Assembly (NCBI GenBank): GCA_902806205.1
Contig: CADCVR010000058.1
Location: forward strand, 1-64,000
Reading direction: 5' to 3'
Origin: an uncultured Solirubrobacteraceae bacterium
GTDB lineage: Bacteria; Actinomycetota; Thermoleophilia; Solirubrobacterales; Solirubrobacteraceae
DNA length: 64,000 nucleotides
Made by a program: the position numbers and the translations under genes. The notes beneath the pieces were generated by a model. The model worked only from the letters and a program-made list of their open reading frames with translations. It had not been told where the DNA came from and made no database searches. Positions within the stretch are counted from its first letter, which is position 1; each line of letters starts with the position of its first letter. Shown here piece after piece: positions 2,792-11,888 of this stretch.

Positions 2792-2882
2792 CATGTCCGA
2801 CTTCAGAAGCTCCGTGCATCCAGGCGCCTCTCCGCGCCGATCCAGCCCGGATCCCGCGACGGAACTTCACGAACCGGTGCAC
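2792..2882 (+). repeat. Short (deleted) copy of the palindrome-ended dispersed repeat
   Basis: This roughly 91-bp stretch between comEC and holA matches both ends of the 165-bp repeats at 10914-11078 and 11725-11888. The left part carries GAAGCTCCGTG and CATCCAGGCGCCTC. The right part carries GATCCAGCCCGGATC, GCGACGGAACTTC and ends in GGTGCAC. The GC-rich middle of the longer copies is missing. The two ends are imperfect inverted repeats of each other. The copy ends two bases before the holA -10 hexamer. Confidence 0.6.
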
Positions 2883-4248: not shown

Positions 4249-4577
4249 GCGGCTCCTCGGCGCGGGCAACCGTGCGCCTCGCGCCTCCGGCGGTGGCGTG
4301 CCGGCGCGCCGTCAAGATGGGTCGTCTCACGGATTCGCTGCCGGCGAGCGACGCCCCGGACGGCCCGCGGCACGACCCGATCGCTCGACGATCCACCCGA
4401 TTGCCATCGCGGTCGTGCGGCTGCGGCTCAGACCGACGGCCGCCGCCGTCGGTGCTCTGCCCGACCGCCCATCGCCGGGGCTGCCTCGCCGAACAACCCA
4501 TCTAGACGATTGATCTTCACGAGGTGGGCCCGTCGATCGGCGGTCGGGTGGATGGCTGACGCCGCACGATTTCCGCA

Positions 4578-4598
4578 GCCGATCCTGTACGGATCGGC
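4578..4598. repeat. Perfect inverted repeat upstream of murJ
   Basis: GCCGATCC and GGATCGGC are exact reverse complements separated by TGTAC, about 90 bp before the murJ start. No T-tract follows, so a terminator is unlikely. An operator or a cruciform is possible. Function is unknown. Confidence 0.5.
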
Positions 4599-4662
4599 AA
4601 GGGATCGGGTGGTGTCAGGTGCCAGCCGAAACGTCGAGCGGGCGGCACCGGATCGGTGGAAT

Positions 4663-4677
4663 CACTCATCTAGAGTG
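4663..4677 (+). promoter_or_regulatory. murJ -10 hexamer embedded in a small palindrome
   Basis: TAGAGT at 4671-4676 ends 9 nt before the murJ ATG without a Shine-Dalgarno. The hexamer sits inside CACTC-N5-GAGTG, a 5-bp-arm palindrome that could let a protein control the promoter. The palindrome role is inference. Confidence 0.45.
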
Positions 4678-4685
4678 CCGCCGCG

Positions 4686-6353
4686 ATGCCGGATCAGCAC
4701 TCCGTCGCACCCGCCTCCGGGGACGACCCGGCCGTCGCGGCGGCGGCGGAGGGCACGGCATCAGCGCCCGGGGCCACCCGGGGTGTGGGGCGCAACACCG
4801 CGATCTTCTCCGTCGCCACAGGGCTTTCGCGCGTCGCCGGCCTGATCCGCGAGGTCGTCGTGCGGGGATACTTCGGCACGACGGGCGCCGCCTCGGCGTT
4901 CACCGTCGCCTTCCAGGTGCCGAACCTCATCCGCGGGCTGTTCGCCGACGCGGCGCTGTCGGCCGCCTTCGTCCCCGTCTTCACCGAACTCCTGGAAAAG
5001 GATCGCCGGCCGGACGCCTTCCGCCTGGCCTCGACGCTGCTGCTCGTCATCATCGCCGCGCTCGGGGCGATCACCGCGGTGTTCATCCTCGGCGCGGGCA
5101 CGGTGATGCCGCTGTTCCTGCCCGGGGACGAGTTCGACCGGGAGCTGATCGAGCTGACCGTCGGCCTGTCACGCGTGATGTTCCCGATCGTCGTGCTGCT
5201 CGGAATCAACGGGCTCGTCGTCGGGATCCTCAACGCCTACGGGCAGTTCTCGATCCCGGCGCTGGCCCCGCTGCTGTGGAACGCGGTCATCGTCGCCACG
5301 CTCGTGGCGGTGCACGGCCTCTTCGAGGGCAACGACCGGATCTACGCCTACGCGATCGGCGTGCTCGCCGGCACCGTGCTGCAGCTCGCCATCGCACTTC
5401 CCGGTCTGCGGCGCCTGGACTTTCGCCTCGTGCCGTCCTTCTCGATTCGCGACCCGCTGATTCGTCGGGTCCTGGTCCTCATGCTCCCGGTGACCATCGG
5501 CCTCGGGATCATCAACTTCGACCTGCTGATCAACTCGATCATCGGCGCACTGATCTCCGAGCAGACACCGGCTGCCATCGACGCCGCCTTCCGCGTCTAC
5601 ATGCTGCCCCAGGGCATGTTCTCCGTCGCGGTGGCCACCGTGCTGTTCCCGACGCTCTCCCGGCTGGCCGCCCGCCGCGACTTCGACGGCCTGCGCAGCA
5701 CGATGGGCACCGGGCTGCGCCAGATCTTCCTGCTGCTGGTCCCGGCCGCCGTCTTCTCCGCCGTGCTCGCCGAGCCGATCGTCCGGCTGCTCTACGAACG
5801 CGGCGAGTTCGGGCCCGCCTCGACCGACACGGTGGCCCTGGCGCTGTTCTGGTTCTCGTTCTCGCTTCCCTTCGCCGGCGCGAACCTCCTGCTGACGCGG
5901 ACCTTCTTCTCGCTGCAGGAGCCGTGGCTGCCCACGGGGCTCGCCGCGGGGAACCTCGCCATCAACACGGTGGTGTCGCTGCTGCTCTACCGGCCGTTCG
6001 GCATCGCGGGCGTCGTGATCGGCACGGCCGTGGCGAGCCTCGGCATGACCCTGGGCCAGTACGTTGTGCTGCGGCGCCTGCTCGGGGGCGACCTGGAGGG
6101 GGCGAAGACCCTCCGGGCGCTCGGGCAGATCGCCGCCGCGGCAGCGCTGATGGGCGCCATGACCTGGGCCGGCCACACCAGCATCCAGGAGCTGCTCGGC
6201 GACGCGTTCGTCGCGCAGATCGTCGCCGTCGGCGGCGCCGCGGCCATCGCGGCGGCCGCCTACGCAGGAGCAGCGCTGCTGCTGCGGGTCGAGGAGGCGC
6301 AGCGCATCGAGCGCTTCATCCTCGCCCGCCTCCGCGCCCGTCGCGCCGCCTGA
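4686..6353 (+). CDS. murJ: Lipid II flippase MurJ (MviN family)
   Basis: The 555-aa polytopic membrane protein has about 14 hydrophobic segments. It carries the MviN signatures LSRVAGLIREVVV, FQVPNLIRGLFADAALSAAFVPVF and the late FGIAGVVIGTAVA. An Ala-rich soluble stretch of about 35 residues precedes the first membrane helix. MurJ moves lipid II across the cytoplasmic membrane for peptidoglycan synthesis. The acid/base residues expected in the early helices (the Arg in GLIREV and Asp in LFADA) are present. Length is normal for the bacterial core protein. Confidence 0.94.
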   Translation: MPDQHSVAPASGDDPAVAAAAEGTASAPGATRGVGRNTAIFSVATGLSRVAGLIREVVVRGYFGTTGAASAFTVAFQVPNLIRGLFADAALSAAFVPVFTELLEKDRRPDAFRLASTLLLVIIAALGAITAVFILGAGTVMPLFLPGDEFDRELIELTVGLSRVMFPIVVLLGINGLVVGILNAYGQFSIPALAPLLWNAVIVATLVAVHGLFEGNDRIYAYAIGVLAGTVLQLAIALPGLRRLDFRLVPSFSIRDPLIRRVLVLMLPVTIGLGIINFDLLINSIIGALISEQTPAAIDAAFRVYMLPQGMFSVAVATVLFPTLSRLAARRDFDGLRSTMGTGLRQIFLLLVPAAVFSAVLAEPIVRLLYERGEFGPASTDTVALALFWFSFSLPFAGANLLLTRTFFSLQEPWLPTGLAAGNLAINTVVSLLLYRPFGIAGVVIGTAVASLGMTLGQYVVLRRLLGGDLEGAKTLRALGQIAAAAALMGAMTWAGHTSIQELLGDAFVAQIVAVGGAAAIAAAAYAGAALLLRVEEAQRIERFILARLRARRAA

Positions 6354-8745: not shown

Positions 8746-9534
8746 ATGGCCTCCGTCAAGTCCCGGGTCGCCCTCGCCGGCGGCAAGTACCTCCTCACGC
8801 ACCCGCGGTCGCGCATCACGCACGTCGTCGTCCGCTTCGCCCGGAAGCGCATCGCGAAAAAGCTCGCGAGGACCACCCACGCCGACGCCATCCCCGCCAC
8901 CCGGGGCTCGCGCCTGACGACCGTGGCCGGGATCGCCGCCGTCGCCGGCGGCATCGTCCTCGTCGTCCGGAGGACCACGAAGCCCGCGGAAGCATCGTCC
9001 TCCGTCAACTTGCCGGAGCCCTACGCCCCCTTCCCGCCCGCGCAAGGTCCGCCGCCCGAGACGGAAAGCGCGCCGCTCGAGACGGCCGGTCCGCCGCCCG
9101 AGACGGAAAGCGCGCCGCTCGAGACGGCCGGGGCGCCGCCCGAGACGGAAAGCGCGCCGCTCGAGACGGCCGGGGCGCCGCCCGAGACGGAAAGCGCGCC
9201 GCTCGAGACGCAAAGCGAGCCGCCCGAGACGGCCGATGCACCGCCCGTCAGCCCGACGATCAGCCCGGCCGCCGAGGCCGCTGCCGTCGCGGCGACCGAC
9301 AACCTGGGCGACAGCGACGACGAGATCGTCGCCCGTGTCGAGGCCAAGCTCTTCGGCGGCGCGCCCGGACTCGTCAAGGTCGAGGTCTCCGGGGGTGTCG
9401 TGACGCTCAGCGGCCCGGTCGACGACGAGGAGGCAGAAGGCCGCTTCGTGCGTGACGCCGAGCAGGTCGAGGGCGTCAAGGCCGTTCGGTCCGAGCTGCA
9501 GACCGCGGGCGCCGAGCCCGGCTCGCCGTCCTGA
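8746..9534 (+). CDS. Membrane-anchored BON-domain protein with tandem Pro/Glu repeats
   Basis: The 262-aa protein has a basic N-terminus and one hydrophobic helix near residues 58-74 (TVAGIAAVAGGIVLVV). Next come four tandem 14-residue units at residues 101-156 built on PPETESAPLETAG. A C-terminal BON domain at about 187-247 carries DDEIVARVEAKL, VEVSGGVVTLSGPVDDE and VEGVKAVRSEL. BON domains bind phospholipid or other envelope ligands. The repeats look like a spacer that holds the BON domain away from the membrane. The precise role is unknown. The antiporter follows immediately. Confidence 0.8.
   Translation: MASVKSRVALAGGKYLLTHPRSRITHVVVRFARKRIAKKLARTTHADAIPATRGSRLTTVAGIAAVAGGIVLVVRRTTKPAEASSSVNLPEPYAPFPPAQGPPPETESAPLETAGPPPETESAPLETAGAPPETESAPLETAGAPPETESAPLETQSEPPETADAPPVSPTISPAAEAAAVAATDNLGDSDDEIVARVEAKLFGGAPGLVKVEVSGGVVTLSGPVDDEEAEGRFVRDAEQVEGVKAVRSELQTAGAEPGSPS
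9046..9213 (+). repeat. Four tandem 42-bp repeats in the BON-domain gene
   Basis: Four in-frame 42-bp units begin GGTCCGCCGCCCGAGACGG or a close variant. They differ mainly at the first codons (GGTCCG against GGGGCG) and at the last codon of unit 4. The near identity suggests recent slippage or unequal exchange, and copy number may vary between strains. Confidence 0.9.
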
Positions 9535-10862: not shown

Positions 10863-10913
10863 CGTGGCGCCCGCTCCCCCGGATCCGCGCTCCGTCGCGG
10901 ACGCAGGCACTCA

Positions 10914-11078
10914 GTGCTCCGATTCCGGAGTTCCGTGGCAGCATCCGGGCGCCTCGCCGGGGCCGTGACGCCCGGCGACGGCCCCGCAAGAACGCCCGGT
11001 ACGAGCAGGGCCGTCGCCGAACGCCACGGCGCGACGAATGCATCCCGGGTCCTGCGACGAACGTACGAAGCGGAGCAC
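10914..11078 (+). repeat. Palindrome-ended dispersed repeat, copy A (165 bp)
   Basis: The element starts GTGCTCCG and ends CGGAGCAC. Its outer ~36 bp are imperfect inverted repeats of each other, continuing through TTC...GTTC...GCAG...CCGGG. The interior can fold into a hairpin (GGGGCCGT paired with ACGGCCCC). It is about four-fifths identical by eye to the copy at 11725-11888 in the same orientation. It carries no reading frame. TCA lies immediately outside each end, a possible 3-bp target duplication. Its right end abuts the stop codon of the MOSC gene. Confidence 0.8.
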
Positions 11079-11720
11079 TCAGGAGGCAGTGGTCGCCGTG
11101 CGCGCCTGCGCCCAGGCCGTCACGACCGGGTTGAGCGCCGGCAGGCCGAGCAGTTCGCCGGCGCGTTCGCGCTCGAAGAGGAGGATCGCCATGACCCCGG
11201 CGACGGTCGGGGCGCCCGGGAGCCGGTCGGAGACCGCGATCGGGTCGCCCGCGGCGACCGCCCCGGACTCGAGGACACGGAAGTACGCGCCGCAGCGCCC
11301 CGCCCGCGCGAAGCGCTTGACCATGCCGGGCAGCCCGATGCGGTGGGCGAGCGTCGCGCACGGGATTCGCGGGCCCGTTGCCTCCAGGAGCGCCGTGCCG
11401 ACCCGCCAGCGCTCGCCGACGACCACCGCGTTGGCGTCGACGCCCTTCGTCGTGAGGTTCTGGCCCAGGACGCTCGCGTCGACGTGCAGCCCGAGCTCGG
11501 CGCTCCACCACGCGGCGTCCTCTACCGCGTAGGCGTAGACGGCCTGGTGGTGCCCGCCGTGGTACTTGCGGTTGTGCTGGTCGTCGCCCTCGAGGCCGAG
11601 CGGACCGGCCGGCACGCGCGCGGCGCCGACCGGCGTCTTGGCGATCGCCGAGCGCCACGGGCGCCCGCGCTTCTCGCCGATGAGGGTGGCGCGGCCGACG
11701 TTCACCTCGGTGACGTGCAT
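11079..11720 (-). CDS. MOSC domain-containing protein (YiiM-like)
   Basis: The 213-aa protein shows RGRPWRSAIAKTPV, GLEGDDQHNRKYHGG and QAVYAY at the N-terminus, then LGQNLTT. A Cys in GPRIPCATLA sits where the MOSC family keeps its conserved cysteine. MOSC proteins handle molybdenum-cofactor sulfur chemistry, and YiiM-like members are linked to reduction of N-hydroxylated compounds. The substrate here is unknown. The ATG is preceded by GGAGGG, which is contributed by the end of repeat copy B. The gene lies exactly between two direct copies of the repeat. Confidence 0.87.
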   Translation of the reverse strand: MHVTEVNVGRATLIGEKRGRPWRSAIAKTPVGAARVPAGPLGLEGDDQHNRKYHGGHHQAVYAYAVEDAAWWSAELGLHVDASVLGQNLTTKGVDANAVVVGERWRVGTALLEATGPRIPCATLAHRIGLPGMVKRFARAGRCGAYFRVLESGAVAAGDPIAVSDRLPGAPTVAGVMAILLFERERAGELLGLPALNPVVTAWAQARTATTAS

Positions 11721-11724
11721 CTAG

Positions 11725-11888
11725 ACCCTCCGGTTCTGAAGTTCGGTGGCAGCATCCGGGCGCCTCGCCGGGGCGTGACGCCCAGCGGTGGCCCCGCAGG
11801 TGCGCCCGGCACGAGCGGGGTCGTCTGCGAACGCCACGGCGCGGCGATCCATCCCGGATGCTGCGACGAAACTTGTGAATCGGAGCAC
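11725..11888 (+). repeat. Palindrome-ended dispersed repeat, copy B (164 bp)
   Basis: This copy has the same orientation and structure as that at 10914-11078. The block from GTGGCAGCATCCGGGCGCC through the next 9 bases is identical in both. The left end reads ACCCTCCG, degenerate relative to GTGCTCCG, and the right end is CGGAGCAC. On the minus strand the left end supplies the GGAGGG in front of the MOSC start codon. No clear flanking duplication is seen. Confidence 0.8.

What the first reader, a model, noticed from the sequence alone, without database searches (positions are those of the whole stretch)
10914..11888. A roughly 165-bp dispersed repeat with ~36-bp terminal inverted repeats (MITE-like or structured element)
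Copies at 10914-11078 and 11725-11888 are about four-fifths identical by eye and lie in the same orientation. The ends GTGCTCCG...CGGAGCAC pair imperfectly over about 36 bp, and the core can form another GC hairpin. TCA flanks both ends of copy A. No reading frame is inside. A shortened copy lies at 2792-2882. This is not explained by any gene and may be a lineage-specific non-autonomous mobile element or an RNA-level element.
Basis: seen in the sequence. Interest (0 to 1): 0.65.

Follow-up and report, generated by a model that had tools for sequence, protein, structure and literature searches.

The report
Mobile hairpin element at gene ends
The repeat is a roughly 162-letter piece of DNA that folds into one long hairpin, has spread to many places in the genomes of a whole family of soil actinobacteria, and lands at the ends of genes so precisely that its first letter often completes the gene's stop codon; its fold has been preserved even where its sequence changed.

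Summary
The repeat is real. Copies A and B are whole-length members, and 2792-2882 a tip-deleted member, of a multi-copy, near-palindromic 160-165-bp element. The window's genome (GTDB genus Paraconexibacter, Solirubrobacterales) has about 11 whole and 15 shortened copies. There its ends are species-specific and flanked by a 3-bp TNA duplication in a CTNAG target. A covariance model finds the same element, same length and defined ends, in 28 of 232 genomes of the order (10 genera), elsewhere mostly at CTAG. 46 of 49 stem pairs carry changes on both sides. Mispaired transitions are G.U rather than A.C on one fixed strand, so a folded single strand (RNA or ssDNA) appears to have been selected. 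Elements sit at gene 3' ends: at 66 of 128 flanking gene ends the TAG stop is TA of the target plus the element's first G. Orientation to genes is unbiased and three unoccupied orthologous sites were found, favouring mobility over a fixed mRNA signal. No helper transposase was found. I read it as a MITE/ERIC/REPIN-like mobile hairpin, probably moved in trans by an IS630/IS5-type transposase: a new variant of a known kind.

The parts
10914..11078 (-). Copy A: whole-length hairpin element (165 bp). Strand given is the strand whose fold is conserved (orientation of alignments A1/A3, starting GTGCTCCG.TTCGTA)
   Evidence: 11 whole-length relatives at 84-94% identity in the genome; fold z -5.2
10911..10913 (.). 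Left 3-bp target duplication TCA of copy A (within C-TCA)
   Evidence: N of TNA equal on both sides in 8 of 11 informative copies, permutation p 0.008
11079..11081 (.). Right 3-bp target duplication TCA of copy A; also the stop codon (TGA on minus strand) of gene 11079-11720
10914..10949 (.). Outer arm 1 of copy A (terminal inverted repeat, GTGCTCCG...)
11043..11078 (.). Outer arm 2 of copy A (...CGGAGCAC)
10962..11030 (.). Inner stem and apical loop of copy A (arms 10962-10987 / 11005-11030); the part removed in shortened copies lies about here
11725..11888 (-). Copy B: whole-length element (164 bp), older; left tip decayed (ACCCTCCG), no clear target duplication (ACC/GAG)
2792..2882 (-). Copy C: shortened element (about 91 bp), upper part of the hairpin deleted at the same junction as other 92-93-bp copies of the genome
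11079..11720 (-). Host gene between copies A and B (MOSC-like by eye, not searched); both copies lie at its borders, at its stop codon (A) and upstream of its start (B)
   Evidence: the orthologous gene in G003 has neither element beside it

Best explanation
A family of short non-autonomous mobile elements (MITE/ERIC-like). Each is about 160-165 bp, one long imperfect palindrome with defined ends (GTG...CAC). SHOWN: it is dispersed in many copies, has species-specific end sequences, is flanked by TNA duplications in a CTNAG target in this genome and by CTA/TAG (a TA duplication inside CTAG, or a fixed palindromic flank) in other genera, is absent from orthologous sites of related species, and keeps its hairpin by compensatory change on a fixed strand. 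INFERRED: a DDE transposase supplied in trans (IS630-like for the TA-in-CTAG form, IS5/IS1031-like for the TNA-in-CTNAG form) recognises the ends and inserts it by staggered cuts. CTAG is rare inside genes and common at stop codons, so insertions fall at gene 3' ends, where duplicated TA plus the element's first G rebuilds a TAG stop; the insertion is nearly harmless. INFERRED: the strand-specific fold is kept because some step of the element's own life (excision or copying as single-stranded DNA, or a protein or nuclease acting on its transcript) works on the folded strand. The lack of any orientation bias relative to genes argues that this need belongs to the element rather than to a host mRNA.
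For: Multi-copy with intact ends and size series 165/117/92-93/54/46/40/20 bp. TNA duplication: 8 of 11 informative copies equal, 1 of 11 complementary, permutation p 0.008. Same element in 28/232 genomes, 10 genera, constant length and ends; about 30 near-identical copies in G099. Three unoccupied orthologous sites with the stop codon at the same codon position or within about one codon: G139/own, G198/own, G001/own; intervals lacking the copies in G003 and G002. Nearly all intergenic: 97 placed between genes, 1 inside a predicted gene. 66 of 128 flanking 3' ends have TAG = TA + element G. Covariation: 20/58 pairs within three Paraconexibacter species, 46/49 pairs over 24 genomes, 323 double-changed cells against 70-88 in slid controls. 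G.U 124 against A.C 21 at pairs whose majority is Watson-Crick, about 1:1 in slid controls; all 75 long copies have G.U > A.C. IS5-family elements of congener G007 insert as C-TAA[..]TAA-G, the same target. IS630-type elements duplicate TA and prefer CTAG (PMC2170065 and its reference to Tenzen and Ohtsubo 1991).
Against: No helper transposase with matching ends was found in this genome or in G099; DDE_Tnp_1 hits of this genome have other ends, and DUF4096, DDE_Tnp_4 and DDE_5 gave none. The genomes are mostly draft MAGs whose contigs break in such repeats, so absence is weak evidence. In other genera CTA/TAG is itself palindromic, so a TA duplication there cannot be told from a fixed flank; G107 has CTC/GAG flanks that look palindromic rather than duplicated. 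A plain DDE-moved MITE does not need its inner hairpin kept, so the conserved fold is not explained by this mechanism alone.
Confidence: 0.72

Rival explanations
1. REPIN/RAYT- or IS200/IS605-like element moved as a folded single DNA strand by a tyrosine (HUH) transposase that recognises the hairpin. The fixed folding strand and conserved stem are then the transposase's substrate, and CTA^ / TAG^ are its cleavage sites.
For: Fold conserved by compensatory change on one strand, as reported for REPINs (PMC3116915). Conserved CTA left and TAG right flanks in most genera without need of a duplication. No DDE helper found.
Against: In the window's genome the variable base of TNA is the same on both sides in 8 of 11 copies, which is a target duplication; HUH elements of the IS200/IS605 kind make none (own knowledge). 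The element is about 162 bp with long true terminal inverted repeats, not two 20-40-bp REPs with a GTAG tag. RAYT genes were not searched.
Confidence: 0.13
2. A host-used RNA or terminator element: a bidirectional 3'-end hairpin that stabilises or terminates mRNAs and spreads because it is useful.
For: Strong strand-specific covariation; located at gene 3' ends, 90 of 97 with at least one adjacent gene end; one site conserved between species G197 and G200.
Against: No orientation bias relative to the nearest upstream gene (49 sense, 41 antisense; tandem 28:24), which a strand-specific RNA signal should show. No T tract at the base was seen. Patchy distribution (28 of 232 genomes) and species-specific sites.
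Confidence: 0.1
3. Arm-to-arm identity is kept without selection by quasi-palindrome correction (template switching within the hairpin during replication), in an otherwise ordinary MITE.
For: Would also give coordinated changes in both arms. Large palindromes are known substrates for such correction (own knowledge). Mosaic and deletion products occur here.
Against: Correction should restore perfect complementarity and has no reason to spare G.U while removing A.C on one fixed strand (124 against 21). The same arm asymmetries (internal loops) persist in different species.
Confidence: 0.05

Closest known systems
ERIC / IRU (enterobacterial repetitive intergenic consensus, 127 bp)
   Same: Intergenic imperfect palindrome of similar size, dispersed, TIRs, TA at the termini, target duplication, no known helper, inserted near gene 3' ends in some cases (PMC2229807, PMC10969869)
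   Different: Different phylum and sequence; target is CTAG/CTNAG and the element builds the TAG stop; ERIC is not known to me to have this strand-specific wobble pattern over 10 genera
RUP of pneumococcus (107 bp, moved by IS630-Spn1) and Correia/NEMIS (TA duplication)
   Same: Short non-autonomous elements with TIRs and TA duplication, IS-encoded transposase in trans (PMC2229807)
   Different: Here no IS with the same ends found; the whole length is a conserved hairpin, not only the ends
REPINs with RAYT transposases
   Same: Mobile hairpins, intergenic, compensatory changes across the stem reported (PMC3116915)
   Different: REPINs are two short inverted REPs with a single-copy RAYT; here long TIRs, target duplication in one genome, and RAYT not tested
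IS5 family, IS1031 group; IS630 family
   Same: Candidate helpers: IS5 elements of congener G007 insert in C-TNA-G with a TNA duplication; IS1031 group uses 3-nt sites (PMC2516522); IS630 uses TA in CTAG (PMC2170065)
   Different: Their end sequences (for G007: GAAGCTGTCTCAATACC) do not match the element's ends
IS701 family of actinobacteria
   Same: Tip TAGTGCTCCGTTAGG in Paraconexibacter antarcticus shares AGTGCTCCG with this genome's element; target CTAG
   Different: 4-bp CTAG duplication and an extra TA before the shared octamer; homology stops after 9 bp, and other genera's elements have other tips

Membership tests
MITE (bacterial, general) | Short (<500 bp), non-coding, dispersed in several copies | tested here: met
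   160-165 bp, 11 whole copies in own genome, up to about 30 in G099; no coding role, near-complete palindrome
MITE (bacterial, general) | Terminal inverted repeats | tested here: met
   Arms pair over the ends in all whole-length copies
MITE (bacterial, general) | Target-site duplication | tested here: met
   TNA in this genome, 8/11, p 0.008; for other genera CTA/TAG, not decidable
MITE (bacterial, general) | Same ends as an autonomous IS that can move it | tested here: inconclusive
   None found in own genome for PF01609, PF13340, PF13359, PF13546 or by tip search in G099; draft assemblies
MITE (bacterial, general) | Insertion polymorphism between relatives | tested here: met
   Unoccupied orthologous sites; between species only, no strain pairs available
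IS630-moved MITE | TA duplication in CTAG and IS630 transposase (PF13358) with same ends | not tested
IS5/IS1031-moved MITE | TNA duplication and IS5 transposase with same ends | tested here: inconclusive
   Duplication fits in own genome; no DUF4096 or DDE_Tnp_4 gene there
REPIN/RAYT | Two inverted REPs of 20-40 bp with tetranucleotide tag, RAYT gene in genome, no duplication | tested here: not met
   Long continuous hairpin, ends GTG..CAC, duplication in own genome; RAYT gene itself not searched
Known Rfam RNA family | Match to a curated covariance model | tested here: not met
   None at gathering score in the window; none credible in 10 element loci
Intrinsic terminator | GC hairpin followed by T tract, oriented with the gene | tested here: not met
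   Flanks after the stem are TAG/TCAG..., no T tract seen; no orientation bias

The most novel reading that the evidence does not exclude
A mobile genetic element whose selected form is a folded single strand (RNA or ssDNA) of about 162 nt, conserved by covariation through a bacterial family, that inserts with a TA/TNA duplication exactly at stop codons and completes the TAG stop with its own first base; that is, a double-strand-type transposition signature combined with a single-strand-type structural requirement not described for MITEs.
Probability: 0.3. Interest if true: 0.75.

Novelty: new variant of a known kind. Interest (0 to 1): 0.6.

Why it matters
Bacterial MITEs are usually described within a species or a few relatives, with only the ends conserved. 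This one can be followed across 10 genera by structure alone, which separates what the element needs (fold, length, ends) from what drifts (sequence, tip, exact target). It gives a natural data set for asking whether short bacterial hairpin elements move or persist as folded single strands. Its stop-codon-preserving placement is a clear example of how a mobile element can be almost harmless to a compact genome. It also explains fragmentation of draft genomes in this group, whose contigs end in such elements.

Tried and rejected
(1) IS1182/IS4-like transposases in own genome as helper: ends GAGGCTGTCGCGCAAAG and similar do not match. (2) IS701 as helper because of the shared AGTGCTCCG tip: rejected as parent since its duplication is 4-bp CTAG with TA before the octamer in about 30 actinobacterial relatives. 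(3) Chance tip matches in G048 and G137 are not elements. (4) Exact tip pattern in genome contigs: 0 hits. (5) Viral contigs (two exact patterns), plasmids and phages (one copy each, distant blastn): no hits. (6) Rfam: nothing. (7) Orientation bias relative to genes, to support an mRNA role: none. (8) Base-level unoccupied sites for copies A-C: intergenic DNA too diverged in congeners, only interval lengths usable. (9) A first reading of one genome's match coordinates gave the wrong stretch and was redone by alignment.

Full report
OBSERVATION. Window 10914-11078 and 11725-11888 hold two copies of a 165/164-bp sequence, same orientation, 84% identical. Each folds as one hairpin with a free energy no dinucleotide shuffle reaches (z -5.2 and -7.0). 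In the window's own genome (G000, 3.38 Mb, 108 contigs) there are about 11 whole-length copies (93-98% identical among the younger ones) and about 15 shortened copies sharing the ends GTGCTCCGATTC...GAATCGGAGCAC. Shortened copies of 117, 92-93, 54, 46, 40 and 20 bp keep both ends and lack the upper hairpin; 2792-2882 is one of them.

TARGET DUPLICATION. Flanks read C-TNA[element]TNA-G. Among 11 copies with TNA on both sides the variable base is equal in 8 and complementary in 1 (permutation p 0.008). So TNA is a duplicated target, not an extension of the palindrome. Copy A has TCA/TCA; copy B is older and has lost the signature.

TAXON. Congener G007 is Paraconexibacter antarcticus (NZ_CP098502.1, same chromosome length), so the window is a Paraconexibacter (GTDB sense) draft genome, order Solirubrobacterales by established taxonomy.

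RELATIVES. The exact ends occur only in this genome among 232 of the order. But congener G001 has a 75%-identical element with different ends (GTGTCGCGAGTC...) and G005 a more diverged one. In these 15 copies 20 of 58 pairs show changes on both sides, 0 to 6 in slid controls. A covariance model (R1) then found whole-length hits (158-165 bp, model positions 1-164) in 28 of 232 genomes and 10 genera, E down to 1e-20 outside the genus, up to 12 per genome with a scoring cap. I fetched 79: all have defined ends, consensus CTA[GTGTCGCGAGTCGGAAGTTCG...CGAACTTCTGAATCGCGACAC]TAG. G099 has about 30 near-identical copies, many cut by contig ends, and every intact one is flanked by CTA/TAG.

STRUCTURE. 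In an alignment of 36 copies from 24 genomes, made from sequence and not fitted to the model's structure, 46 of 49 predicted pairs have changes on both sides, 89% of cells pair, and 323 cells are doubly changed against 97 in shuffles and 70-88 when partners are slid. At pairs whose majority is Watson-Crick there are 124 G.U against 21 A.C cells; slid controls give about 1:1. Comparing arms copy by copy, all 75 long copies have more G.U than A.C (570:66). Caveats: orientation of distant copies was set by the model, which prefers G.U, and some G.U pairs are inherited from a common ancestor; the within-genus set alone is less decisive. Taken together, a folded single strand of fixed polarity has been selected. 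RNA and ssDNA cannot be told apart from this.

PLACEMENT. With a simple codon-usage gene finder, 97 elements could be placed between genes (52 tandem, 38 convergent, 7 divergent) and 1 lay inside a predicted gene. At 66 of 128 flanking gene 3' ends the stop codon is TAG made of the target's TA and the element's first G. Among 79 non-own copies 53 have this on at least one side, against 25 of 61 background CTAG sites (Fisher p 0.003); CTAG is depleted inside genes (6 of 61). So most of the preference follows from CTAG avoidance in genes, with a modest excess. There is no orientation bias (49:41; tandem 28:24).

MOBILITY. Three pairs of species have an occupied and an unoccupied site: G139 ...RFLEQFA* (TAG) against own ...RFLGQFG* (TGA) at a pheS-pheT-like junction; G198 ...VMIEVP* against own ...VLVEL*; G001 ...WALPTG* against own ...WTLAS*. 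The reading frames end at the same codon or within about one codon, so insertion left the proteins nearly unchanged. For window copies B and C the orthologous intervals in G003 and G002 are shorter by about the element's length; copy A's neighbourhood is rearranged there. One site is shared by two species (G197, G200), showing that copies can also be inherited.

HELPER. Own genome: two DDE_Tnp_1 hits with unrelated ends, no DUF4096, DDE_Tnp_4 or DDE_5. Congener G007 has IS5-family elements inserted as C-TAA[...]TAA-G, showing that transposases with this target exist in the genus, and an IS701 element whose tip shares nine bases with this genome's element but whose duplication differs. IS630 elements duplicate TA and prefer CTAG (PMC2170065). 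I infer a trans-acting DDE transposase that is missing from the draft assemblies or lost. This step is not shown.

COMPARISON. Closest are ERIC, RUP, Correia/NEMIS and REPINs (PMC2229807, PMC10969869, PMC3116915). Shared: size, palindrome, intergenic placement, TA-type targets; for REPINs also compensatory stem changes. Different: a single hairpin conserved by covariation through 10 genera, G.U polarity, and the stop-codon-completing junction. It meets the tested general MITE criteria except the identified parent IS. It is not filed as a REPIN because a target duplication is present in this genome and the REP anatomy is absent.

VERDICT. Observation confirmed; interpretation partly right and too narrow. 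New variant of a known kind.

Noticed in passing
window 4502-4673: A second palindromic dispersed family (172 bp, ends ATGATTGATTCCACG / CGTGGAATCACTCAT, flanked by CTAG on both sides) with about 30 copies in the genome, many exactly at contig ends; fold z -5.7.
   Followed up: partly
L116 about 4960-5000 and L127 about 4830-5000 (own contigs C89, C19): A third palindromic family (GGGAGCGTCCGAAAACAAGT...GACGCTCCC, TNA-type flanks), in both places directly adjacent to a copy of the element studied here and followed by the same TTAGCTCAG.
   Followed up: partly
L128 5001-5185 (own contig C36): A chimera joining part of the 172-bp family to the middle of the 165-bp element, without ends of either.
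   Followed up: no
L300, L301, L302 (G107), L320 (G088), own 92-93-bp copies: Shortened forms of nearly the same length (91-93 bp, upper hairpin removed) recur in three genera and are multi-copy in two, as if the short form moves too.
   Followed up: partly
L111 5001-5020 (own C28:8014-8033); G099:C180:4636-4653: Minimal 18-20-bp end-to-end palindromes with the element's ends only, flanked by the target motif: possible last stage of deletion.
   Followed up: no
window 9034-9247: Imperfect tandem repeat of about 84 bp inside a coding region.
   Followed up: no
G007 (Paraconexibacter antarcticus) L144-L151: Eight near-identical 1436-bp IS701-family elements, perfect tips TAGTGCTCCGTTAGG, 4-bp CTAG/TTAG-type flanks; none in the seven other genomes of the genus.
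   Followed up: yes
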